Part shown: one piece after another, positions 2,540 through 64,000 of the stretch
Layout of the letters: the number at the start of each line of letters is the position of its first letter
Numbering within the stretch: the first letter of the stretch is position 1
Source of the DNA: Sinohyriopsis cumingii
Lineage: Eukaryota; Mollusca; Bivalvia; Unionida; Unionidae
Length of the DNA stretch: 64,000 nt
Direction of reading: 5' to 3'
Assembly: GCA_028554795.2 (NCBI GenBank)
Contig: JAPYKE020000270.1
Location: forward strand, 575,501-639,500
The notes under the pieces: model-generated
What the model was told of the DNA's origin: nothing
Databases searched by the model: none
The model's input: the letters and a program-made list of their open reading frames with translations, nothing else
Program-made: the position numbers and the translations under genes

Positions 2540-3980
2540 TTAGTCCAAACTCATTGCATGCTCAGCTTCTGTGTGGGTGGTTAGAGCAGCATCGTCTGCG
2601 AAGAGCATGTCCCTGATGGTTACTTCACGCACTTTGCTCTTTGCTTTCAGTTGTGCCAGGTTGAACAGTATGCTGTCTGATCGCGTGTGCAGGTAAATCC
2701 CTTCAGTGGACGTCCCAAAGGCGTGCTTAAGCAGGACTGCGAAGAAGATGCCGAAGAGCGTGGGGGCAAGGACGCAGCCCTGTTTAATTTCACTGCGGAT
2801 GTCAAGAGGGTCGGATGTTGAGCCATCGTGCTGCACTGTACCTTTCGTGTCCTCGTGGAAGGACTGGATCACGCTTAGCAGCTTCGGAGGGCAACCAATT
2901 TTCGCCAGGATTGTGAAGAGTCCGTCTCTGCTGACCAGATCGAATGCCTTGGTGAGGTCTATAAAGGCCAGGAAGAGGGGTCTGTGTTGTTCTCTGCATT
3001 TTTCCTGCAGTTGCCTAACAGAGAAGATCATGTCGATTGTTGACATCTCTGCCCCGAACCAGCACTGCGACTCTGGGTAAATTATGTAAGCAAGCGTCTG
3101 CAGTCTGTTCAGGATGACACGTGCGAAAACTTTATTCACGATGCTGAGATGTATTATGCCCCTGTAGTTGTTGCAGTCGCTTCTGTCGCCGTTGTTCTTA
3201 AACATGGTTATGATGTTAGCGTCTCTCATGTCCTGAGGCACTTCACCCTCGTCCCAGCAATGGCAGAGGAGGTCGTGCAGTGTGTGAGCAACACGCTACA
3301 TCCGTACTTGATGAGTTCTGCTGTGATCCCTAGGCCTTTACCTGGGGACAGTTTCTCTAAGGCCTTCTTCAGTTCGTCTACAGTAGGTTTCCCGTCCAGT
3401 TCGGCCATGAGAGGGAGGGTTTCAATGACGTTGAGGGCATTATTGGTCACATGGTTCTCTTTGCAGTACAGTTCGGAGTAGTATTCCACCCAACGCTCCA
3501 TCTGTTTGCCCTTGTTGTGGATGGTATCGCCTGTGGCAGACTTCAGTGGTGATTTCAGGTTCGTCGTGTGACCCATTGCTTTCTTTTATGCCATCGTATA
3601 TGCCTCTGATGTTTCCAATATCTGCTGTTGACTGAATGCTCTGACAGAGGTGAAGCCAGTATTCATTGGCACACTCCCGTGCTAATCTCTGCACCTTGCT
3701 TCTGGTATACCTGTATGCCTGTAGTGTCTTCTGGCATAGGGATCGCTTGTATTGCAGCTGAGCACTGCGACGCTTTTTCATGGCTGGCATGAGTGCGGCA
3801 GAGTTAGCTTCAAACGAGTCATTGTTCTTTGATTGCTTCTTACCAAAGATCCGTGTGGCTGTGCTGTACACAGTCTCTCTGATGTGATCCCATCTTTCTT
3901 TGGCACTGCCGTTGGGGGGTTCTGAATCAAACGTCTTGGAAAGAGCATAGGTGAATTCCTCAGCCTAGTCTGGATAAGAT
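2540..3980 (-). pseudogene. LINE reverse transcriptase (interrupted)
   Basis: The minus strand encodes a basic linker (3871-3440) followed by RT fingers and palm. A KLSPGKGLGI-type block lies near 3340, then NYRGIIHLSIVNKVFARVI (about 3170-3110), FIDLTKAFDLVSR (about 2975-2935), QGCVLAPTLFGIFFAVLL (about 2790-2735), and the catalytic LFADDAA at 2586-2606 with both Asp residues. One long frame of 233 codons (3241-2540) remains open. Frameshifts near 3240 and 3570 separate it from the upstream part. By family knowledge this is the polymerase for target-primed reverse transcription. Confidence 0.9.
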
Positions 3981-5621: not shown

Positions 5622-6765
5622 ATATAGAGTGTTGAAATAAATATCTTAAACATGGCATGTTCTACAGTGACATTTTACATTAACAATATATACGATTGCC
5701 CATTTATTAAATTGGTGTAAATGGAAAGACCAGAAGAAACTACACACAAAGAAATATATTTGAGCAGAGTAAGACACAAAACAGTAATATTTCTTCATCA
5801 CATTTGCTCTGTCTGAGGATAATAACAAACTGTCAGCAACATTTTGATATCGAGGTGTGGATGTTATCGACTTGATTTATTGTTACAGATATTTACATGA
5901 AAATATATCGATATATGTTGATGTGCGTAGAAATTCGCTTTAGTTTATTTTGATAGCAAGTATATGAAAATGTCATACAATCGATAGATTCATAAAAATA
6001 TCATTAGGTAAGTTAAACTAGGTATTCTGTATATGATTGAAATTAGCAGTCTCAAGACTGTTTATGATGCCATGAATGATGGACACAAATAGGTTTATCT
6101 CATTAAGGTTAATAATCTATAATACACGATATAACTTTATAATATTATATGACTGTGTTCTGATCTCTGTTTTCATAAATGCACGTAATAATGTTTGTGG
6201 TTCTGTGATTTAACGAATTGTATAGACATATTGCAAATTCAAAAGAAGGTCGTCACTACAAAGGAATTTTAAATAAATTAGAAATGACGAATATTCTTCG
6301 GACAATCTTTACTGTAATCCTATCTTGAAGTTATCAGAAAAAATTATACATGACCAACATTTCAGTTCACTTTCCTCTATACCTTCACCTCCGAATGTTA
6401 TCGGTTTACACGTATAGTACTTTTCAAATGATTTCAAAATTTCACACGCAATACTTGTATAACAAACCTTGGTCAAGAAATAAGTTTACAGGCACTGCTA
6501 AGTGGTCTTAACTCATCTTGAAAAATTACACGTTTATTTTTTACCAAACAACGATATCTTACTTTCTTTACAATCAGTATCGATGGATTGTACGAAATGA
6601 CTCTAAATGAATGTAAATTACCTATATTAAATTACACGTTTTTTTAAATAATTTAGATTTTATGAAATTTCATACCTAGTACACAAATAAAGCCTGATGT
6701 ATAATCACCTTTCTTAACAGTTTAATCAGTATTAAACACACCCTAAATCTTTAAATCTGTTTGCA
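5622..6765. repeat. Large inverted repeat, left arm
   Basis: This matches the reverse complement of about 14565-16068. Paired blocks include 5641-5660 with 16030-16050, 5850-5870 with 15805-15820, 6100-6135 with 15540-15575, 6460-6485 with 14880-14910, and 6660-6680 with 14655-14670. Indels and substitutions are frequent. No protein-coding signal was found in either arm. Confidence 0.8.
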
Positions 6766-7005
6766 GAAAACCATGTGATATCATGACTTTAGTGCCTTTG
6801 TTCTAGTCCCATTTATTCCTTCTTAGTACGAATTATTTTGCTGTTGTATTTTGATTTCTGACTTTATCTAAGGACGGACTTTTTCAAGTTCTATTATTTG
6901 CAACATTATGTCATTAAGTCATTACCATGTCAATGTATGATCAGTGCATTATGTTTTCATTCAATGAACTACCTCTTATTTTCAATATTTGTATATATTA
7001 TTTGA

Positions 7006-7056
<51 letters not shown>

Positions 7057-7776
7057 GAATGTTTTGCTTCAGTTTGATATTTCTTTTGGTGATCTTTTTA
7101 TTTGACTTTGTGCTTTTTCCCGTCCGTAAAGTTTTATTGTCATAATTCATTGTTTATATTTTAATGGTGTCTTGTCTTTCGTTTCTGTTTACTTTTCTCT
7201 AGTTAAAATTGTTTCGTGGATTTCTTGTGAATTGTCGAATTTTGAATTGTGAAAGGAAGGTGCTGGTACATGTTTACTTCCTGCTATGCATTTGTCCTTA
7301 CCGAGTTTTCATTTCACTCGTCTTGTATTCGTTTTCTTAGCTTTCTGTAATGTGGTATTAATTCTGCTTCTACGTCTGTGTAATGAGGACTGTGGTAATC
7401 TAATATGTAGCAATATTCTATCTCCTCCTTCCCTCTTTTTGTTTTGTTTATTTTGGTGTTTTCGTGCACTGTGGCAGTCCATTTAAGTACTTGTTTCTTT
7501 TGTTTGATTTGATTTTGTATTCAAATCTACGATATTGATATAGTGTAGTAATGAAACATTGCCAATAGTCCAACAAACACTGGAGGTAATTACATCGGTT
7601 TCGTAAAAATATTTTATGAAATGTATTAGACAAACGTTCTGGATCATAACTTTGTGTTTGTTTTGAAGAATACAGGTGTCATAGTTTCAGTGCAATGTGG
7701 TCTTTATAAGCCAGGTCAGACCAATTTGATCCACACGATGATTAAACTCCGTTCAGGATCCCGATATAAAATTGCT

Positions 7777-29834: not shown

Positions 29835-30358
29835 TTATGGTTGTGCTTCTGATTCAGGAGCGAACTGCGCCCGGCGCCCTTTACGCTGCTTTTTCTGTTC
29901 CATCGCTATCTTGGGCATTGTTTTTAGTCTTTTTTCCCTACATTTTCAAATCGACGCATACATTTTTCTGGCTCTGTTTCCATTCTCAAATATCAAATTG
30001 CAGCCATTTTAAGTACTTTGTCTCTTTTCCTGACTGTGGAAAGATCTTCAGCATTAAATTTATCTATTATCTTGGTTTTAGCATTTCGTGGTGGTGGCTG
30101 AACTTGTGGTGGGGTTTGAAGATGGCCAGCAATATCAGCGGGTAATGCCTCAAGAGTATTTGGTGTTGCCTCAGTCGCTATAACAACTGTTTTGGTTGGT
30201 TCGACAAATCGTGTAAATAGCTGTTCTGTGCCCTCTGTAGATTTGACATGAGCATCCTGGCAATGTCGCAGCTGTTGCTTGTTGGAATCACAGACTGGAA
30301 GATACTTCTAAAACGCATCCAGTCGTTGTCACGCTAATTAAGCCGTATGAGATACCAT
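29835..30358 (-). pseudogene. Paralogue of the capsid-module head gene
   Basis: From an ATG at 30358 the minus strand reads one frame with three early stops, then open to a TGA at 29993, then eroded frames. Four blocks match the gene at 53481-54139 in order: RLDAF/RLEAI near the N-terminus, YLPVCDS versus FLPVRDS, EGTEQLF (about 30240-30220) and VEPTK (about 30205-30190). The second half is proline-rich (PPQVQPPPR), unlike the 54-kb copy. Function unknown; the 54-kb copy opens a capsid gene train, so a virion or assembly role is inferred. No terminal inverted repeat was found beside this copy. Confidence 0.65.
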
Positions 30359-40001: not shown

Positions 40002-40751
40002 ATGAAAAACACTATCATACAATGGAATTGTCAAGGACTTAAAGCAAATTACAATGATATTCTCCTACTTTTAAACGAACATGATCCTGCGGTACTATGC
40101 CTTCAAGAAACATTCTTCAAAGATAAGGACAACATCACATTTAAAAACTACTCCCTGTTTAACACCTGCTCTCCAAATGTTGATAGGGCCTCAGGAGGAG
40201 TTTCTGTTATTGTGAACAACAGAGCCCCTCATAGCGTCATCCATTTAAACACAAATTTACAAGCCATTGCTGTAAGCGTCACTCTTCATCGAGTGACTAC
40301 ATTTTGCTCTATTTACTTACCACCAAACACTAACCTAGAACCAAACGAATTAGACAACCTTGTTCAACAGCTTCCCGCGCCATTTGTTTTACTCGGGGAC
40401 TTTAATGCCCATAACATGTTATGGGGATCAAATGATATAAGTGACAGAGGTCACAAAGTTGAAGACTTTATTTCTAGACACGATCTGTGTCTATATAACA
40501 CGAAAACACCGACATATTTACACCCAAGAACGGGTACATACACGTGCATCGATTTGACAATTTGTTCTCCTTCGCTGCTTTTGGACTACGAATGGAAGGT
40601 TGCTGATGACCTTCACAGCAGTGATCACTTTCCAATATTCCTTAAAAATATTAACTCTACAATTGATGACGTAATTCCACAATGGAATATAAAGAAGGCC
40701 GACTGGACTAAATTTGAAACACACTGTGAAACTAGGCTGAATGCAGATTGA
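40002..40751 (+). pseudogene. I-clade LINE ORF2: endonuclease domain
   Basis: 249 open codons. Motifs in order: IIQWNCQGLKAN (about 40014-40048), CLQETF (about 40100-40116, catalytic Glu), GGVSVIV, YLPPN, LLGDFNAHNMLWGS (about 40390-40430, Asp/Asn), and SDHFPI (about 40620-40638, Asp-His). All main active-site residues are retained. The frame is closed by a TGA at about 40749, after which the same frame continues, so this is ORF2 cut by a nonsense change rather than a separate gene. Confidence 0.9.
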
Positions 40752-42206
40752 TTTTTCAATGTTAATGACCCTATTCAACATTTTACATCTTTTTTATTAG
40801 AGATTGCAGAAGAATCCATTCCCAAGTCCTCGTCGAATTGTAAAAGAACCCCAAAACTTTGGGTCACTACGGAATGTAAGGAAGCCATTAGACTACGCCG
40901 AGAAGCATTAAAAAAAAATTGATAATCATCCGACGCCCGAAAACTTAAATATATATCGTATTGTCCGGGCCAAAGCCCCCACGCACAATAAAAGAAAATA
41001 AAAGAGCATCATGAAAGAAATATGAACGGAAAGAGAAAACAAAACATTCTCTGATATCTGCCACAGAACAATAACAACTTTAGTTCAAAACGTGACATTG
41101 CAAATGCTCTTGCTAACAGTTTCTCCAAAAAATTCATCATCATCTAATTATTCAGAAGCCTTTCGTAAACTTAAAACTCTAAAAGAAAATTCACATCCAA
41201 CAACTCGGAAAGATGTAATCAACTGTTCTCACTATCGAACTTAGGGAGGCTTTAGATAAGGCCCATTATACATCCGCTGGGCCTGACGAAATACATTACC
41301 AGTTTTTGAAACACCTTCCAGAATCATCATTAACATCTCTTTTGAAACCGTTCAATGATTTATGGATTACTGGTAATGTACCAAAAATCTGGAAAGAAGC
41401 AACTGTAATACCAGTTCCAAACCCGGTAAAGATAGCGAAGATCCCAACAGCTACTGACCCATTGCACTCACCAGTTGTGTGTGTGAAAGAATGGAACGAA
41501 TGATCAATTCTCGGCTTGGCTGGTACTTGGAAACTAATAATTTAATATCTCCTTTCCAAAGTGGCATTCGATATGGCCGTAGCACTAATTATAGTCTGGT
41601 TAGACTGGAAACATTTATTCGCGATGCATTTATTAAGAAAGAACATTTAGAAGCGGTTTTCATTGATTTAAAAAAGTGCGATGACACGACATGCAAGTAC
41701 GGGATACTAAATTACCTGCACGATCTAGGTCTAAAAGGCCGTCTGCCCTCTTTTATATCCAACTTTCTTTAAGACAGAGAATTCAAAGTACGAGTGGGCT
41801 CTACCCTCTCAGATCTGCACGACCAAGAGATGGGTGTGCCCCAGGGCAGTATTTTATCTGTGACGCTCTTTAACATCAAAATTAATAGCATTACCAAGTG
41901 TTTGGCTCCTGATGTGGATTGCTGTTTATACTTTGATAATTTTCTAATATGTTATCGATCAAAGGACATGCATACAATTCAAAGACAACTGCAGCAAAAT
42001 ATAAACAAGATTCAAAATTGGGCCAATGCAAACAGTTTCAAATTCTCGAAATCAAAAACGGTATGCATGCATTTCTGTCAGTTACGAAGAAATCACGATG
42101 AACCTAACCTCACGCTGGACGGAACACCTATTTCAGTTGTTGAGGAAACAGATTTTTAGTTATAATCTTTGACAGAAAACTGACCTTTATTCAACACCTA
42201 AAGAAC
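40752..42206 (+). pseudogene. I-clade LINE ORF2: reverse transcriptase
   Basis: Broken into several frames. Motifs: PKLWVTTECKEAI (about 40850), SAGPDEIHYQF (about 41275-41305), WKEATVIPVP (about 41390), then a small deletion removing part of the fingers. Next are SPFQSGIRYGRSTNY (about 41545-41595), AVFIDLKKCDDTT (about 41655-41690) with the first catalytic Asp, GVPQGSILSVTLFNI (about 41830-41875), and YFDNFLICY (about 41929-41957) where the usual YADD/FADD pair has lost its second Asp. This last change alone would abolish polymerase activity. Confidence 0.88.
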
Positions 42207-48348: not shown

Positions 48349-48369
48349 GGGAAAGATGTATAGAAATAG

Positions 48370-48512
48370 CAGCAGGGAGGGCGAATAGCTCTAAATGGAT
48401 TTCTCTCCATTTTGCAAAATAAGCTTTCCTCGAAATCACACAAAATGTGTCCGTAAGCAAAAACTCGCGATCTCATCGGTGTGAAGTCGATAGACAGCAG
48501 CCTCGTTGCTGC
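48370..48512 (+). repeat. Left terminal inverted repeat
   Basis: Begins CAGCAGGGAGGGCGAATA and ends near GTTGCTGC. It matches the reverse complement of 54168-54313 with about 13-15 differences and a 2-3 base gap near the tip. Apparent frames across it on either strand are by-products of the repeat. Confidence 0.9.
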
Positions 48513-48544
48513 CATTATTATCTGCTGAAGTTGTTCTCTCGTTA

Positions 48545-49135
48545 TTATTTTATTTTTCTTTCAAATGGAAAGAACTCATTAATGGTATCATTGACTGATT
48601 TTCTTAACTTGACTGCGTTATACCCGGGAAGTTTAAAATTTCTTAGTTCAGCTTCTGTTATCGAATACTCGTTTAAATACTGTTGTCTGTGGTCTATCTT
48701 TTCAGTATTAATTATTGCTTGAATTGCTCGCTGGTTAATATATTCCATGTCGGATATGAGTTGATTTAATATTTCAATTTGTTTAATGATTTTTCTGCGT
48801 GAAATTGTAATATCAAAAAGATGTTCTTGGAAGCTTTGCCGCAATTTTTCTAGTTGTATTTTATGTTCTCGGTTGATTTCTTGAAAATATCTAATAATTT
48901 CTCCTAGGGTAAAACTAGTTACTGCTGTGGGGGTACATTCATAAATAAAATGCAACGTAATATTGTTACCAAAGAAGCTAAATTCACTACCTAACGTTAC
49001 ACTTTTTATGCCAAGTAAATGATCTTTGTAACTCGGGTTAATATCGTGATTGATTATCCGTGGTAAAAATGACTTCGCTGGTATCGGTACCTGCAACGAT
49101 TCAGGGATGATTCTTGACGGAGTTAGTTCTATCAT
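48545..49135 (-). CDS. Last gene of the element: 196-residue protein of unknown function
   Basis: Uninterrupted frame, ATG at 49135, stop at 48545, about 33 bp from the inner edge of the left repeat. Not recognised. The N-terminal third is beta-like with prolines (MIELTPSRIIPESL). Residues about 85-145 are predicted by eye to be a long amphipathic helix or coiled coil (REHKIQLEKLRQSFQEHL, then SRRKIIKQIEILNQLI). The C-terminus is basic (FFPFERKIK). Its start overlaps the end of the previous gene by 35 bp, typical of compact viral genomes. It could be a structural or host-interaction protein; no function is assigned. Unusually for this locus it has no stop or shift. Confidence 0.7.
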   Translation of the reverse strand: MIELTPSRIIPESLQVPIPAKSFLPRIINHDINPSYKDHLLGIKSVTLGSEFSFFGNNITLHFIYECTPTAVTSFTLGEIIRYFQEINREHKIQLEKLRQSFQEHLFDITISRRKIIKQIEILNQLISDMEYINQRAIQAIINTEKIDHRQQYLNEYSITEAELRNFKLPGYNAVKLRKSVNDTINEFFPFERKIK

Positions 49136-49484
49136 TATTTATTTTTTCTTCCTTCAAATTTTGGCTTATTACTTCATTGTATGTCTCTGGCATCATCGCG
49201 AATTCGGAATCTGATATTTTATCGTCGCTGAGGCTTGATGATATCAACGACGATAATTTCGAGTACGCGTACGTGGCTGTGTTTAATTTTATAACTGCGT
49301 CGTTGAGTTTTGTGCTCATGCACGTGGACTTTTTTTTCTCGATCATATTAAAAACACCCCCGATGGCAATCGATGATGAAACGCATAGTGTTCCCGCTAT
49401 TACAGTTACTGGCGTTAGCATTGATAATACTACTCCGGTGGAAGCAACTACCGCAGATACTGAATAAACTATAGCATCCAACAC
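49101..49484 (-). CDS. Two-transmembrane protein, 127 residues
   Basis: Uninterrupted. Residues about 5-25 and 27-45 form hydrophobic segments (AIVYSVSAVVASTGVVLSML and VIAGTLCVSSSIAIGGVF), followed by a basic KKK cluster and a soluble helical tail with SLSDDKISDSEF and an acidic-basic terminus. The tail pattern (a leucine-rich helix, then a D-x-I-S-D-x-E-F turn, then another helix) recurs, as far as I recall, in small proteins of Polinton-like loci in aquatic invertebrates. The role is unknown; membrane insertion is inferred from hydrophobicity. Confidence 0.7.
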   Translation of the reverse strand: MLDAIVYSVSAVVASTGVVLSMLTPVTVIAGTLCVSSSIAIGGVFNMIEKKKSTCMSTKLNDAVIKLNTATYAYSKLSSLISSSLSDDKISDSEFAMMPETYNEVISQNLKEEKINNDRTNSVKNHP

Positions 49485-49626
49485 GATTACACGCCGCCGG
49501 TATTTATTTTTTTTTTTACTTTTAACGTATACTCATTGATGATATTCTTTTAACTCTCCTTGCCATTCACGTACTTGATCGTATCTGTAATGTTGTGGAT
49601 GTAATGTCGTTGTTGACATTAATATT

Positions 49627-50651
49627 TTACGCATTAACCAATTGAGGTGTTTCAGCTACAAATTCCAGACACCACAGGTAAGATGTTGCGGTTAATTTCT
49701 TATCAGCTGCTTCCAGTATAAATGTTTCTTCGGTTCTGCTATTTAAGATAACAGTCACAAGCCCGGAAAACTTATCGGTTGAATGCCTCCTAAGATATTT
49801 TGTAAATATCTCACATTTTGCAGCACTGAACACAGACAGAATATACACACCAGTAACTGTTGGGATATGTTTGATAGTATTATTTTGTTTTGACCATGTT
49901 GCGAATCCTGATGATACTGTGTACACGATGTTGTTAATATGTCCGGGAGTTACTACAGGTGGGATTTTAATCAGACTAAATTTGTTAACGATCTCAGGAA
50001 TTCCACTTACGGTATCTACTAGTGTTTGTTTGGTTGTGTCAATGTTCGTCTTGATATCAGAGAGTTTTATATGAACGGTAAGCGGATCACCAAAGAATTT
50101 ATCCGCGACTTATTAAGCTTCCTAAAGTTTTTACGGAGATTGTTAAACTCCCTTACGTGAACGTCATACTCGGCCCGCAACGTGGATAATTTACCATCTA
50201 CGGTCTTGTAGCTGCAATCTACATACTTTTTCGTCGTGGCATCTTCGTCGGATGTTGGATTTCTTAAAACCACTATTTTATTCCCGTTCATGTTGAGTTC
50301 ACCTGTCATTGTATCACCAGTGTTTTTCAAACGATTAGCAACGCTTCTTGCAATTTCATCTCTGATGGTTGCAACCGATATACTTGAGTCTTTGATTCTA
50401 CCACCGTCGGTAAACTCAGAGTTGTTATCCGTGACCGCCCCGAGAATTTGTCGAACTGTATCTTTCCATTTGATGCTGCTCGTTTTTAACTCACCGCATC
50501 GGTCTTGGAAAACAACAACCTCATCTCGGTCAACCCCGGACAAGTTCATAAGATCAGATATTTCATCTTTGGTCGCAAATTTTGATAAATCAATATCATC
50601 GGATTTTTTACCCTTTACTTTCCTGAGAAATCTTCCGTAAATATCAACCAT
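49627..50651 (-). pseudogene. Fiber-like protein gene, one frameshift
   Basis: ATG at 50651; 194 codons open, then a frameshift near 50085-50105 and a second open part to 49627, about 340 codons in all. Residues about 110-150 carry a GDTMTGELNMNGNKI block followed by a KKYVD block, a pattern seen in phage tail-fiber and collar-like repeats. A helical stretch precedes the shift. The C-terminal half is beta-rich (TPGHINNIVYTVSSG and later EFVAETPQLVNA). By analogy such proteins form surface spikes that attach to the host, but here the role is inferred from domain type and from position between protease and the terminal genes. Confidence 0.7.
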
Positions 50652-50668
50652 TATAATTTAAGATCTGT

Positions 50669-51073
50669 TTAAAACGAAGCGGTTACTTGTATACTCGTGC
50701 ACGACTTTGTGAGTGGTTTGGTTGATTTTGATAACGCGTCAAGCACATTAATTACTTCACGGCCACATATTGGTGGATCGGTTAATCTTTGTGTTGGTAG
50801 CGTTGAGTACCAAATTGGAGTACTTGGAGCGTTTTATACATATTTTAAAAATTCATCTAGTGGTGCTAACCCATACGAATCGAAATAAACAATTCCACGT
50901 GGATAGATCGCGTAAGCAACCCAGTGAGTTCCTGGACCATCACTGTTATCAAGATTAATAATTTCTGTTTCTTTAATATTCGGTTGCCTTGGTAACTAAT
51001 TTCGCATAAAAATACCTCTGAAATTTTATATTTTGTGTTGCTTAGCGGCATCCAGTAAATCAAAATTTGACAT
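50669..51073 (-). pseudogene. Adenain-like maturation protease, interrupted
   Basis: From an ATG at 51073 one frame contains a GTHWVAY block (about 50925-50905, candidate catalytic His), YFDSYG (about 50890-50872, candidate Asp) and PICGRE (about 50770-50752, candidate Cys). This His-Asp-Cys spacing fits the adenovirus-type cysteine protease fold that cleaves capsid precursors. Three in-frame stops break it: two before the His block and one after the Asp block. At 134 codons it is shorter than adenoviral proteases. It follows the pX-like gene, as expected for this element type. Confidence 0.7.
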
Positions 51074-51119
51074 CGGTGTGAGACGCGTTGCGTCTGTTAA
51101 AAACATTTCGGGTACCATG

Positions 51120-51602
51120 AGGGCGGAGTTCCTGGAATTCTTAGACCCGCTCCGTATTGTTCCACTGGTAATCTTAGACGACCCGGCTGAGGCATATTTG
51201 ACTTCTTTGGGCGACTTGTTGGATTTCGTGTCCGTGATGATCTTTATTTTAAGTTTTCCTTGTGTAAAATTCCCTTTGCAGTTGCTTTCTTTAATGCCAT
51301 TCCAGCAGCAGTTCCAGCAGCACCTAAGCGGCTGCCTTTGCGACAGCTGGTGCAGCAGCAGCAATTAATGCTGGCATTGCTGCGAGAAGTGGAAATATAT
51401 CAACGGTTTTAATCATGTCTTTGATGGCACTTGGAGCGAAATCAAGTTGAACTCCGGTTTTTGCTTGCTGAGCTTTATTAAAGTGTTTTATTTGAGTTTT
51501 AGTCAACGATAACTTGTTTGGGCCACCACTAGCAATTTGATCTCGCTTCAATGTTATTTTGTCCCGCATGCGCTTGCGTATTTTTGATTGTAATTTTTTC
51601 AC
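51120..51602 (-). pseudogene. pX-like small basic/hydrophobic virion protein
   Basis: The first 92 codons (51602-51324) are open. Residues 1-30 are very basic (KKLQSKIRKRMRDKITLKR), followed by a KLSLTKTQIKHFNKAQQAK block and then a hydrophobic Ala-rich segment (FPLLAAMPALIAAAAPAVA). After a shift near 51324 the Ala-rich segment continues (AAGTAAGMALKKA), and the end carries an EQYGAGL block near 51150. A basic head plus membrane-active segment is the layout of adenovirus pX/pVI-type and adintovirus X proteins, which are thought to assist DNA condensation or membrane disruption. The assignment rests on layout, not residues. Confidence 0.65.
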
Positions 51603-51673
51603 CTGACCGGGAGTCAGAGTGACATTAACGTGACTATATTACAGTTTTATAATAACACGGTTGGTCTAATTGT

Positions 51674-52997
51674 CTACATGTTTTCCACTGGGGCATCAAT
51701 GACTCTCATTCGCCCACCAGCACCTTCAAGTAACATTGCTTTATCGCTGAGTATAACTGCAATTACTCTGTAACGAACACCACCTGAGGCTACGCTAGCT
51801 CAAAAATGTATATCAACGACAGATTACTTAACTAAATCAAGATGTTCAAGCGAAAAGTAATAAATCGGATACAAAGATGTAAAATCTAACTGCGATATTT
51901 GCAAACCAGTATCAATATTTTGATTACGTCCCATAAATGTCATCAAACTATGATATGCACGTGCTACATAATTTTCGTTAAAATCCAATAATATATCCTC
52001 GGATGGTTCTTGATGTCGGTTTATTCTTAAAGATACTGCAGAGGCACCAAGTTTGTTAACTACCACTGGATGTCTTTCTTGATTGTTTAATCGTGCAGCA
52101 TCTTGAAATGCAACAAAGATATGTCTTGGTGCAGAAACACCTTGCTGTGATGATATATGCCAAGTAAATAAACCGTCGACAGGATTTTGATTACCTTCGG
52201 TAGTTGTTGTTGACCACGATAATATTGATTTACCGCCTTGATCCATAAAAGAAAGTAGCCGCTGTTCTTAAGTGAGTGATGGAGTCATTGCCGGCATCTA
52301 CAATGAGAGTTTAAATAATATTACTGTACCATCAGCAGTGCCATTTTTTCTCCAGATAGCACCATTATCATCACCTTTTCGATGAAGAAAAATTGTATGT
52401 TTGGCTCCAAAAATGTCCTTTCTGACATTTTTGCAAAATCCAAAGATGTGGGACAGTGGAATTGCACATGAAAATCTTCTACGATCACCTTTTAATATTA
52501 ATTGACGTGGTCTAAATCCTAAGTTGTAATTTGGATTGCTATAAACCACCGGCCACACATCAGCGTCATTGTTGTCGGAAAAGTTTCTTGGTCGTCTTAC
52601 AGGATCAGGTCTCCCATCGGGATGGTCAGCATTATGCTAGACCCATAATCGTTGTAGCAACGTCAACATCATCTTGGTTTATCTCAAATTCTTTCCCATC
52701 TATCATGTATATAGCACTTTTGAATAACGCCATGATGCCATTATTAACAAAGCCAACTCTGGCATTAGCTCCGTATGGTGTATTAGCAGCAACATTTGTT
52801 ACAAGTTCACCTGTGACTTCAAAAAATGCTTCAGCGGGCAAAAAATATCTACTTGTATCCTGAACTCATAATTCAATCCGTCCACGTTGATTTGGCGATA
52901 CTGCTTCATAACAATAATATTGATAATCAAGCACAGACTCAACCTTGAGTACTGGTGCATTCATGTCAAACAATGGATCAGATATACGCTTAAACAT
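51674..52997 (-). pseudogene. Major capsid protein (double jelly-roll type), multiply interrupted
   Basis: ATG at 52997, final TAG at 51674, about 440 codons, within the size range of Polinton-type capsid proteins. Blocks in order: SVLDYQYY near the start, EAFFEVTGELVTN (about 52845-52805), a NNGIMALFKSAIYMIDGKEF block (about 52745-52690), FSCAIPLSHIFGFCKN (about 52470-52425), KHTIFLHRKGDD (about 52405-52370), FTWHISS, PRHIFVAFQDA (about 52125-52090), FTSLYPIYYFSLEHL (about 51880-51840) and a YRVIAVILSDKAML tail (about 51775-51735). Damage seen: TGA near 52866, a frameshift near 52625, a TAG and a TAA near 52300 and 52265, a stop near 51827 and a shift after it. The hexon-like trimer is the virion building block. 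Confidence 0.85.
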
Positions 52998-53011
52998 TTT
53001 ATTATAATGTG

Positions 53012-53402
53012 TTATTGTCTAACACGAAGACCACTTCCTGATATCAGACTTCTATTTATTTGTTCAGTCCCTTGACCTATCAAGGCTGCTAGTTTTTGAT
53101 TTGCGGCTTGATTTATTCTTTACTGACATTCGCGGGCATTACTTCAGTGCGTGGTAATTACACTGGTTGGATCGCTTTTGGTTTGCGTATTAATCGTGCT
53201 AGTCTGTCCTTGATTGCCAAGAACGCTTTACATTACCAATAGCACCAGGAGCTTTATCACGAACAAGGGCAATAGCTTTCATTGATAATTGTTTTGCGAT
53301 CGGTATTGCTTTGGGGGCTATCCTGCTGAATAAACCCTGAACAACATCACCGAGTCCATCTCCGTAAGTGTCTTTATAGGTTGATAATCGCGAATTTATC
53401 AC
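53012..53402 (-). pseudogene. Small basic protein upstream of the capsid gene
   Basis: From ATG 53402, 67 codons are open: an amphipathic, Ala/Lys-rich protein (IAPKAIPIAKQLSMKAIALV) ending in a shift near 53200. A second part in another frame reads NQKLAALIGQGTEQI and ends at 53012, 15 bp before the capsid gene start. It resembles small minor-capsid or core proteins of adenovirus-like elements in composition and position. Not firmly identified. Confidence 0.55.
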
Positions 53403-53480
53403 CCTAACCGCTATAGGTCTACGATGAGCATTATGTATGATTATCTTATTTATTATTCATTTATCTAATCGCGATAACAA

Positions 53481-54139
53481 CTAGTCACTATGATAGTCAT
53501 CAACGATTTCATCAATGAATTCCCGATAAACATTAATGTCCATGATACCGCCTTGAAATAATCGTCGACAAATATCAGCTGCTTCATCGGTTATTTCCGG
53601 AGAATTATTTCCAGCTCGTTTACCCCCAATCAGAATTTCTAACCGTTACACGTCCTCGAGAATATTATTAGGACAGGCAATAAGGCCACTTCTTAAACCA
53701 CCTCCGGTTAAACCCGGGTCAGATGATGGTTGTCTCGTGGTCGAAATTGCTGCTTTGTTGGCGTTGAAGCACCCGTTTTTATTTCATTAACTTTTTCAAC
53801 AAATTCTTCATATTCGCGTCTATATTTTTTACTGATTTGTGGAATTTTTAACATCCCAGATTTCAGCACGTGTTTTATTGGCAGACTCCATAGCTTCGGT
53901 AATTGTTTTGGTAGTTCCGCGATAACCTTTTCTGATGCTAGTGTAGTCTAAGCGATCTTTTTGGTTGGTTCAACAATTGGTTTAAATAATTGTTCTGTAC
54001 CCTCTCTAAATTCAACCTGAGATTCTTGACGTTCCTAAAGTTTTTGTTTGACACTATCACGGACAGGAAGAAATGTGTTGATTGCCTCTAGTCGCTCTCG
54101 AGCTAATCTAGTGCTGTATGCTTTTCCGACGTTTGTCAT
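53481..54139 (-). pseudogene. Head gene of the capsid train, about 220 codons, interrupted
   Basis: ATG at 54139, only 29 bp inside the right repeat; TAG at 53481-53483. The first frame has two TAG codons (near 54037 and 53950) but otherwise continues through KKYRREYEEFVEKVNEIK, then shifts near 53715. The last part, after a TAA, reads ILIGGKRAGNNSPEITDEAA and ends in an acidic DEIVDDYHSD. The shared EGTEQLF and VEPTK blocks show that 29835-30358 is a paralogue. Helical and charged; function unknown, possibly virion or assembly related because of its place in the train. Confidence 0.6.
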
Positions 54140-54167
54140 TATTGATATGAAAATGATTCAATTAAGA

Positions 54168-54313
54168 GCAGCAACAGGGCTGCTGTCTCTCGACTTGACA
54201 CCGACGCGATCGCGATATTTTGCTCACGGACACATTTTTGTGATTTCGAAGAAAGCTTATTTTGCGAAATGGAGGGAAATCCATTTAGAGGATATTCGCC
54301 CTCCCCGTTGCTG
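54168..54313 (-). repeat. Right terminal inverted repeat
   Basis: Inverted partner of 48370-48512. The outer tip reads CAGCAACGGGGAGGGCG on the minus strand. Plus-strand frames crossing it are not genes. Confidence 0.9.
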
Positions 54314-56600
54314 AAATGTCATTATATAGGTCAGATAACATACAACCTCCCAAACACTAAATAATTTTCATCTTTTGAGCCATCAACACCCTACCACTAA
54401 TCTCCATAAGATAAAACTAAACTTTAAATAAATAGCAACAGTGAACCAATAATGAACTTGTAATCAATGTTTCAAAATCAACACCCTACTCCACCCTGTA
54501 ATATTAGATGTTATATTTCCTAATACAACTGACAACAAAACATTTAAGCTTATGTTCATTTTCCAAACTCAATACCAGACCCTTAGAGTTAAAACCATTC
54601 CTTTACAAATTAATATGTCCTTACCGCTTTTCCTCCTGAAATCTAAGGAAGCTTGCCATATACACCGCTTTTTTCCTGTTCATTCAGATGCTCCAGCCGT
54701 TTTAATAAGCAATTGACATTTTATAGTATAGGACCACAGATAAATAATTGAACATGACCTAAGGGACCAGCCTATCCGTGGTGGAAAACAAAATTAATGA
54801 CATTTATTTGAAGTAAGCCTGTATATGGGCATATTTTTTCTTCGCTATCACATCACAGGTGTTACTTACTGTAAATTGAAAGATCTCAAAGAGGCAGATT
54901 TTGTAGTTGGTATCTTCATTAGTATGTTTCTCAAAAACTAACCATACATTTACTCACTTTCAAAGTTTCTCTTTGGATAGATCGTTCCTTAGATGTAAAC
55001 GTGATATGCCAAACTTTGTATGAAAGCTTTATCAAACTATCCTAACGTTAGCATTACTTTCTAAGGGAACTGAATTATCTATCTGTGCCCAATAGCAAGA
55101 AACGCGCGCAGAGTAAAAAGTATACGCATAAAATACGCACATCACTTTTCTTTTTCATTCTGTCAGTCAGAGTGAACATATTTGTACTTAAGGATTAAAA
55201 TGTATGTTGTGTACAATTGTACCCAGTTTTGCTATCAGGGAATTCAAAAAACATATCCCAAAATAGCATAATAATGCGCCGTGTAATGCATTTTCTTAGC
55301 TGCGCTAGTATTAACACGTGTCGTTTAACATCTACCTATTGCCAATTTTAGCATAAAAGATGGATGTTAAACAAAGTACAAAAATGTTTGCAATTATTAC
55401 AAATTTGGGGAATATTTTTATGCTATCGGTTATATAACACTATTGCATTTTTTCTCTATTTTGTGAAACCAGCTTTGCGACGTAATGGGAGCTCTGAACG
55501 CTGTCTGTTAAGCCAGGTTTCTTGCTTTTTCTACTTTGAAATCATTGTGTTTTTCTTAACATTTGCAATTTTCCAAAAAATGCTTAACATACTTCATACG
55601 GTTCGGTGTCTGTCCGAATAAAATACAATGACATGCATGTTCCAGAAAACATCTTCCTTTGATAATGGTAACAACTTTAACTCGTTATTTCTTTGATGGC
55701 CCAAAGGACCACTTCGCAGAAAAAGTGAATATTTAAGTCAGCGAAGGAGAAAGTAGATTCAAAGATTAACTTCTCTTTTGTATGAAAATCATTGTCCACG
55801 CACTCCTTTCAAATAAATATTTGCTAGACATTCCCCTCATTTTCTTTGTTAAGATCAGAATGCCCCTATAATTGAAATTCTTCCTATATAGATGAATTTT
55901 TTGGCCATTTTTTACATGAGAGTAGTACGTGTACATTAAATGAAACATAGAATGGAAGTATATTGTTGAACTTCTTTCTTTTCTTCATATGACTATTTCC
56001 CGGATTACTACCGTTTTCCAATCCTGCAGCAACACACGTCCAAATTCGTTTAGTTGGGGACACACTCTAAATATCTACATAGGACCAACTTACCTTTCAT
56101 TGAGAACATTCAGATTGAAAATGTAAACAATTTATCGTTATAGTAGGTTCCCAAATTGATATAAAATCATCGATATATTCCAAACAATAATTGCGATACA
56201 ACACTGCTTTCAATGATAACAGTCGTTGATCATGAATATTATCGAATTAAACTTTGATTTGAAATCACGTCCAGTTAAATGTGTTTCAGCTAAGCAATCA
56301 GTGCATGTGCGGTGTTATATTCAATTGGCTTGAACCTTCAATATTTCGTTTGTTATTGTAGTCTTAATACTTTACGTGTGGACCAAAATTAATACACCAA
56401 AAGTTTAGAAGAGAACTGAGACACATCTCTACCTGAACAAATCCGTTTATAAACATTTTTTACGGTATGCTGGTAATGAGACAGGGGTTGTATAGCGTTT
56501 TAATATGAAAATCTCTATACTAAGATACATAAACAATTTAGAAATACGGAGTTTGCTCAATTTAGTATATGTTCGATTCAGGAAAGACCTATGATATAAG
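54314..56600. other. AT-rich stretch, nothing recognised
   Basis: An 85-codon plus frame (55364-55621) is hydrophobic but has no motif. No repeats matched elsewhere in the window. Confidence 0.5.
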
Positions 56601-63468: not shown

Positions 63469-64000
63469 AGTCAGATATATATCGATTACCACGATTAGTG
63501 ACTCAGCAACCGAAGGTTGAATCCAGACAATTGAACTTCCATCAAACGAAGCAATGCTCGAGCCAGTCAGTAGAATTATCATTGAAAATGTTCAACAACG
63601 AGTGACTGATTGAGTGATTGTGGCAATTTGAATTGAATTAGGGTTGCGAGAACGACTGGAAATGTTATCATAAGGTATGAGAAAAAACCAAAAGTGTGTA
63701 AAGGTTGAGTGTCTTGGTGAAAGAGGTTGACTACCGTTATAAGTGCATGATACTTCTCGGTATATTTTCTCATGTGATGTCTTCTTGTAAATTGATGGAG
63801 GACTGACACAAACCAGCAATCATAATTACGCCCATGATTTCAAGGTTGGAATTGTCAACAAGACTGTAATGGCCTTGTTCAGTAGTGTAAATCATGTCAT
63901 CACAATTGCAACACTTGTTTTGAACAGCGTGGAGGCTGAGCCCAGTTATTATGATTGAGTGGAAATACTTGTACAGATGGTCCCAGTGCTGTTTTCAGAG
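63469..64000. other. Unassigned end of window
   Basis: Two overlapping minus frames of about 75 codons have no motif. Nothing called. Confidence 0.45.

What the first reader, a model, noticed from the sequence alone, without database searches (positions are those of the whole stretch)
48370..54313. Capsid-only element bounded by terminal inverted repeats
A one-strand train of virion-type genes (major capsid, pX-like, adenain-like protease, fiber-like and others) fills almost all the space between two roughly 90% similar, 145-bp inverted repeats. The first ATG and the last stop are each about 30 bp from a repeat. No polymerase, ATPase or integrase is visible. A random deletion of a 15-20 kb Polinton would not be expected to leave intact spacing at both ends. 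This suggests a compact, possibly non-autonomous mobile or viral unit that carries only morphogenesis genes and relies on a partner for replication and integration.
Basis: partly seen in the sequence, partly recalled or inferred. Interest (0 to 1): 0.92.

Follow-up and report, generated by a model that had tools for sequence, protein, structure and literature searches.

The report
Broken half of a mussel-type virus
This looks like the decayed capsid half of a virus-like element that was once about 15 kb long and lost its copying genes by deletion, in an animal genome that also holds many fuller relatives.

Summary
In detail: two 145-bp inverted repeats (48368-48512, 54168-54312; 88% alike) with exact 5-bp target-site duplications enclose a minus-strand train of virion genes, without polymerase, ATPase or integrase. 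A natural capsid-only unit is not supported. In the same genome this repeat family bounds two-module elements of 15.4 and 17.3 kb, themselves decayed and partly deleted. They add a superfamily-1 helicase protein, rve integrase, PLA2 and packaging ATPase to the capsid train. Two further elements (6.1, 7.5 kb) lost the capsid half; one (5.0 kb) joins mid-fibre to mid-ATPase. In the window, homology to the 15.4-kb element runs into the first eight or so codons of a penton-like gene, then jumps to the repeat's inner edge. So the tidy spacing is where one breakpoint fell. Seven matches span this junction, all with the same flank: one insertion, later duplicated; the 38 other listed matches stop short of it (40 of 1,524 candidates scored). 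As I read the frames, seven of eight genes are broken: a fossil. The larger surprise is a sister lineage with open frames: 106 capsid and 150 helicase matches scored, from tens of thousands of loose first-look candidates.

The parts
48363..48367 (.). target-site duplication GAAAT, left copy
48368..48512 (+). left terminal inverted repeat (145 bp)
   Evidence: 129/146 identical to the right TIR; same family elsewhere in the genome
48519..48542 (-). stub matching about the first 8 codons of a penton-like gene, then the deletion junction to the TIR inner edge
   Evidence: homology to C15 runs to 48519; penton queries without the G9-like part match nothing else in the window element. Penton is a label by position and recalled likeness
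48545..49135 (-). G9, 196 aa, uninterrupted; relative of a domain inside the penton-like gene of some fuller elements
   Evidence: (second match in C15); no database relative
49101..49619 (-). G8, two-helix membrane-type protein (weak SLATT-like match below cut-off), interrupted
49627..50651 (-). G7, fibre-like protein, one frame break
50669..51083 (-). G6, adenain-type protease, interrupted; start uncertain
   Evidence: relative with open frame: Peptidase_C5 E 0.0098, below cut-off
51244..51638 (-). G5, small basic pX-like protein, one frame break (name recalled)
51674..52997 (-). major capsid protein (double jelly roll), interrupted, about 90 bp missing relative to C15 and C18
53012..53456 (-). 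G2, small amphipathic-looking protein, interrupted
53481..54139 (-). G1, coiled-looking protein, interrupted, 0.36-0.45 kb shorter than in C14, C15 and C18
54168..54312 (-). right terminal inverted repeat (145 bp)
54313..54317 (.). target-site duplication GAAAT, right copy
30170..30352 (-). diverged relic of a G1 gene, outside the element
63743..63901 (+). diverged relic of an MCP N-terminus, outside the element
   Evidence: score 91, 0 of 2000 shuffles reach it

Best explanation
A fossil internal-deletion derivative of a TIR-bounded, integrating Polinton-like virus of the Tlr1 type. The parent, pieced out from decayed relatives, was about 15-17 kb: TIR, G1, G2, MCP, pX-like, protease, fibre, G8, G9, penton-like gene, then a large protein with an SF1 helicase domain and an HNH-like end (read by eye), rve integrase, PLA2, a zinc-ribbon-like protein and packaging ATPase, TIR. 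The integrase inserted it with 5-bp duplications (inferred from several elements). One deletion of about 8.9 kb (C15 coordinates) joined the first codons of the penton-like gene to the inner edge of the far TIR, possibly by short homology, leaving a capsid-only remnant. It decayed, and large duplications carried it to seven places. Shown: the module content of relatives, the junction, its uniqueness in the scored sample, the shared left flank. Inferred: the mechanism of deletion, and protein-primed replication of the parent. Undecided: whether the deletion came before or after insertion.
For: This TIR family stands at both ends of C14 (17,304 bp, TSD GAGGT) and C15 (15,432 bp; ends eroded, GGGAA if placed by eye), and both hold capsid genes and the replication module. 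rve scores above the Pfam cut-off in C15 and C52, below it in C10; A32-type ATPase above cut-off in C52. C52 (6,080 bp, TSD GCATC) and C10 (7,547 bp, no TSD seen) lack the capsid half but for the start of G1; C18 (4,991 bp, TSD GTATG) joins mid-fibre to mid-ATPase: different breakpoints, same ends, as expected of independent deletions. Window DNA 48519-48568 is 82% identical to C15 into the penton-like gene and then enters the TIR. Junction query: seven matches span it, all 38 other listed matches begin at query position 49 or later, the TIR edge being position 43. The seven share 99.3-100% identity over 1,498 bp of left flank; right flanks, compared for two of the seven, 99.3 and 99.5%. Further losses in G1 (against C14, C15, C18) and MCP (against C15, C18).
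Against: G9 is open over 196 codons and the fibre has only one break, a little tidy for a fossil. The junction search scored 40 of 1,524 candidates, so a second insertion with the same junction could be missed. C14 and C15 are not clean parents: C14 lacks the stretch from mid-fibre through G8, C15 lacks the N-terminal part of the large protein. Between the pX-like gene and the protease (51156-51271) the window has 115 bp where C15 has 45 and C18 4, unexplained. The window's own join does not show the short homology exactly. The polymerase, HNH, zinc-ribbon and penton names rest on reading by eye: one search found only helicase families in the large protein, nothing for the HNH-like and penton-like pieces, and the C52 helicase piece alone is below cut-off. 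18 of the 26 TIR matches outside the seven copies were not read.
Confidence: 0.9

Rival explanations
1. A trans-mobilised capsid-only satellite: the 5.9-kb unit, once formed, was replicated and integrated repeatedly by enzymes of fuller relatives.
For: TIRs and target-site duplication are in place; a replication-only unit with the same ends and its own duplication exists (C52); many relatives could supply enzymes.
Against: The junction is seen in one insertion only; its seven copies share the left flank.
Confidence: 0.06
2. Natural capsid segment of a bipartite or multipartite virus, with C52/C10 as the replication segment.
For: Complementary gene sets between similar TIRs; segmented ITR-bearing animal DNA viruses are described (passages of PMC8363768).
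Against: C14 and C15 carry both modules. The window ends in a stub of the penton-like gene and shows no ATPase. C10 and C52 differ in length and C18 is fused inside genes.
Confidence: 0.02
3. The TIRs belong to an unrelated dispersed repeat that happens to flank a Polinton-like remnant.
For: TIR ends of about 50-80 bp match many further places, not read.
Against: In C14, C15, C18, C52 and C10 the same TIRs sit at the ends of elements of this gene family.
Confidence: 0.02

Closest known systems
Tlr1 / Tlr1-type Polinton-like viruses
   Same: SF1 helicase protein, rve integrase, packaging ATPase and capsid protein in the parent family, with an HNH-like end and a penton-like gene by eye; such gene sets are described for Tlr1 (PMC4642659, passages) and Tlr1-like helicases with palm and HNH parts in PMC11071308 (section 10). 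5-6 bp duplications are stated for PLVs (PMC12220804, passages)
   Different: Animal host genome; carries protease, fibre and PLA2; the window copy has lost helicase, integrase, ATPase and penton-like gene
Polintons/Mavericks (vertebrate)
   Same: TIRs, rve integrase, capsid and protease genes in one module, most copies decayed (PMC8097293: section 7 and passages)
   Different: 5-bp rather than 6-bp duplications, other terminal motif, different module layout. One survey set Polinton-like elements under 10 kb aside as incomplete (PMC4028283, methods passage)
Adintoviruses/meldviruses
   Same: Virion gene set with hexon, adenain, membrane-active and coiled proteins; genomes with adenovirus-class virion proteins but no recognisable PolB and integrase are mentioned (PMC11071296, passages)
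   Different: Adintoviruses are defined there by an OTU-bearing PolB and BLAST-recognisable hexon, not tested here
Segmented bidna-like viruses (Vesanto virus)
   Same: Short ITR-bearing units with partial gene sets (PMC8363768, passages)
   Different: No sign of a stable capsid segment here; C14 and C15 carry both halves

Membership tests
Tlr1-type Polinton-like virus (parent family) | SF1 helicase protein | tested here: met
   L025 2690-6001: AAA_19 44.0 bits vs cut-off 25.1; the C52 piece alone is below cut-off
Tlr1-type Polinton-like virus (parent family) | protein-primed polymerase palm in the same protein | tested here: inconclusive
   no polymerase family matched; motif-A-like stretch seen by eye only
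Tlr1-type Polinton-like virus (parent family) | rve integrase | tested here: met
   34.9, 34.6 and 33.6 bits vs 32.6 in L025, C52, C15; C10 22.3, below; C14 by tblastn only
Tlr1-type Polinton-like virus (parent family) | A32/FtsK-type packaging ATPase | tested here: met
   Pox_A32 46.2 (L025) and 43.4 bits (C52) vs 22.8
Tlr1-type Polinton-like virus (parent family) | double jelly-roll MCP | tested here: met
   L023 MCP 68.6 bits vs 27; window pieces align to the family profile
Tlr1-type Polinton-like virus (parent family) | minor capsid protein (penton) | tested here: inconclusive
   conserved gene in C14, C15 and L021-L024, but no Pfam match
Tlr1-type Polinton-like virus, window copy itself | helicase, integrase and ATPase genes present | tested here: not met
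   91 six-frame pieces, none
Polinton/Maverick sensu stricto | 6-bp target-site duplication | tested here: not met
   5 bp exact in four of six elements read, a fifth placed by eye, none visible in the sixth
Non-autonomous mobile unit (satellite or MITE-like) | same internal structure at several independent insertion sites | tested here: not met
   junction only in seven copies with a shared left flank (40 of 1,524 candidates scored)
Adintovirus | OTU-bearing PolB and BLAST-recognisable hexon | not tested
   no adintovirus reference was compared
Segmented virus | segments packaged and co-occurring | not testable with these tools
   single genome, no particle data

The most novel reading that the evidence does not exclude
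In this genome a Tlr1-type virus family persists as a multi-component system: two-module elements together with capsid-side and replication-side elements bearing the same ends, some of which are moved and packaged in trans by the others.
Probability: 0.07. Interest if true: 0.85.

Novelty: new member of a known kind. Interest (0 to 1): 0.4.

Why it matters
The finding itself is an ordinary fate of a transposable virus, but it shows how a deletion that ends at a TIR edge can mimic a compact designed element. The family around it matters more. A Tlr1-type Polinton-like virus with rve integrase appears in more than a hundred scored copies, many with open frames, in a large animal genome, and offers two-module, capsid-side and replication-side copies in which trans-mobilisation can be tested by computation.

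Tried and rejected
Viral-contig scans with fibre, MCP piece, MCP alignments A1 and A2, pX-like, G8, a distant MCP (P0058) and protease found no relative: 8 of 8 scans. Genome-contig scan with A2 and tblastn of P0031 on phage records: none. The G9 search of the protein database gave nothing, although G9 has relatives in this genome, so that database is thin for such hosts. PDB searches with MCP pieces, the MCP profile and the fibre head: nothing relevant. No Rfam family at gathering threshold and no tRNA in the window. The TIRs fold better than shuffles (z -2.5 and -2.7); a parvovirus-like hairpin end was considered and dropped, as the genome copies explain the TIRs. Literature: no paper in the library holds any of six phrases such as 'non-autonomous polinton' or 'defective polinton'; this says nothing of papers not held. 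Starrett et al. 2021 (adintoviruses) was not held.
Full report
What is there. Between 48368 and 54312 lie two 145-bp inverted repeats, 129/146 identical, flanked by the 5-bp direct repeat GAAAT. The 5,655 bp between them carry a minus-strand train of eight virion-type genes: G1, G2, major capsid protein, a pX-like protein, a protease, a fibre, G8 and G9. The capsid protein is a double jelly-roll protein. Its pieces match PF21738 below cut-off, but one piece matches 29 proteins at 54-89% identity, and a profile of relatives matches three pieces, the best at E 2e-69. Of the 73 proteins, three are named Sinanodonta woodiana, a freshwater mussel; the rest bear no species name. The protease and fibre assignments are weaker. 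As I read the frames, seven of the eight genes are interrupted by stops or frame breaks. The TIR arms differ by 15 substitutions in 144 compared sites (Jukes-Cantor about 0.11), so the insertion is old.

What is missing. A Pfam scan of the 91 stop-free six-frame pieces of 30 aa or more at E<=1 and an NCBIfam scan at E<=0.1 found no polymerase, integrase or packaging ATPase.

Fourteen are the two arms of seven near-identical copies on contigs C270 and C46. The other 26 are diverged; I fetched six places covering eight of them (C6, C10, C14, C15, C18, C52) and left 18 unread.

Five of those six have both TIRs. C14 (17,304 bp) and C15 (15,432 bp) hold capsid genes and a replication module: a helicase-type large protein, an HNH-like part, rve integrase, PLA2, a zinc-ribbon-like protein and ATPase. 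Neither is complete: C14 lacks mid-fibre to G8 and C15 lacks the N-terminal part of the large protein. C52 (6,080 bp) and C10 (7,547 bp) hold the replication module with only the start of G1. C18 (4,991 bp) holds the capsid train up to mid-fibre, fused to the second part of the ATPase. C6 holds genes of both modules within 19 kb, but its left end was not found. Target-site duplications of 5 bp are exact in the window (GAAAT), C14 (GAGGT), C52 (GCATC) and C18 (GTATG); C15 fits GGGAA if its eroded ends are placed by eye; C10 shows none. TIR arms are 86-91% alike over the best-aligned stretch of each element, with second stretches at 75-78% in C52 and C18.

The junction. Comparing the window with C15, homology runs through G9 and on through 48519-48568 (82%), which in C15 leads into the start of the next gene, penton-like by position and recalled likeness only (no Pfam match); then the window enters the TIR. 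Penton queries without the G9-like part match nothing else in the window element. Relative to C15 about 8.9 kb is gone (24890600 to 24899496). Near the join, C15 reads ATAGCCGCAA at the gene start, and the TIR edge of C10 and C14 reads ATAGCAGCAA: a possible short homology, though the window's own join does not show it exactly. The C18 join also shows a few shared bases by eye. So the G1-side spacing is native, and the G9-side spacing is where the breakpoint fell. The window copy also lacks 0.36-0.45 kb in G1 (against C14, C15, C18) and about 90 bp in MCP (against C15, C18), and has 70-110 bp more than C15 and C18 at 51156-51271.

One insertion, duplicated. A query across the junction (48470-48680) gave seven matches that span it and 38 that all begin at query position 49 or later, the TIR edge being position 43 (40 of 1,524 candidates scored). 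The seven share 99.3-100% identity over 1,498 bp of left flank; of the right flanks two were compared, at 99.3 and 99.5%. They lie about 370-460 kb apart on C270 and C46 (positions); one carries a 2.4-kb insert in G2. They are duplicates of one insertion. A recurring capsid-only unit is therefore not supported, within the limits of the scored sample.

The family. The capsid search of the genome had 32,364 first-look candidates; the best 106 were scored, all full length at 77-79% identity to P0031, 101 of 106 without an inside stop. The helicase piece had 23,485 candidates, 150 scored; by my count of the table 131 have no inside stop and about 64 lie in open frames above 1,000 aa. The candidate numbers come from a loose first look and are not copy counts. 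I fetched four of the 106 capsid places (L021-L024) and one replication-side stretch upstream of a fifth (L025). They show open frames for G1, G2, MCP, pX-like, protease, fibre, G8 and penton-like genes, with partial or cut penton in L021 and L024 and no free G9 in L022 and L023. In L022 and L023 the penton-like gene is followed directly by a stretch resembling the TIR's inner edge. No TIR like the window's was found in these four beyond 17-22 bp, so the ends of this lineage are not established. rve, A32-type ATPase, PLA2, SF1 helicase and double jelly-roll domains score above Pfam cut-offs there. Similar gene sets are described for Tlr1-type elements (PMC11071308 section 10; PMC4642659 passages). 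I did not confirm a polymerase palm.

Host. MCP relatives in Sinanodonta and about 19 contigs with matches beyond 60 Mb suggest a freshwater mussel; the chromosome number of that group is recalled, so this is inference.

Verdict. Whether the deletion preceded insertion is open. Interest lies in the family and in its mix of two-module and one-sided copies.

Noticed in passing
G000, many contigs; L021-L025: A sister lineage with open capsid and replication genes: 106 capsid matches scored of 32,364 first-look candidates, 101 without an inside stop; 150 helicase matches scored of 23,485. May be a large recent invasion of an animal genome.
   Followed up: partly
G000:C4:91748956-91773203: 13 matches to the G9 end at 2,006-2,011-bp spacing: apparently a tandem satellite of about 2.0 kb that contains a viral fragment.
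   Followed up: no
C270 and C46, seven copies: The window's element lies in duplicated DNA recurring about every 370-460 kb on two contigs, left flanks at least 99.3% identical.
   Followed up: partly
window 30170-30352 and 63743-63901: Relics of a G1 gene and of an MCP N-terminus outside the element in the same window.
   Followed up: partly
L014 about 6950-7189; L019 about 5760-5977: C52 and C18 share a right TIR expanded by a similar internal stretch, so they may come from one sub-lineage with unequal ends.
   Followed up: no
L010 7730-8254; L021 6525-7799: A G9-like domain sits inside the penton-like gene of some fuller elements, so free G9 may be a duplicated penton insert.
   Followed up: partly
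window 51156-51271: The window and C14 keep a stretch between pX-like gene and protease that C15 and C18 lack.
   Followed up: no
window 2540-3241, 40002-42159: Reverse transcriptase and endonuclease domains, apparently non-LTR retrotransposon remnants.
   Followed up: no
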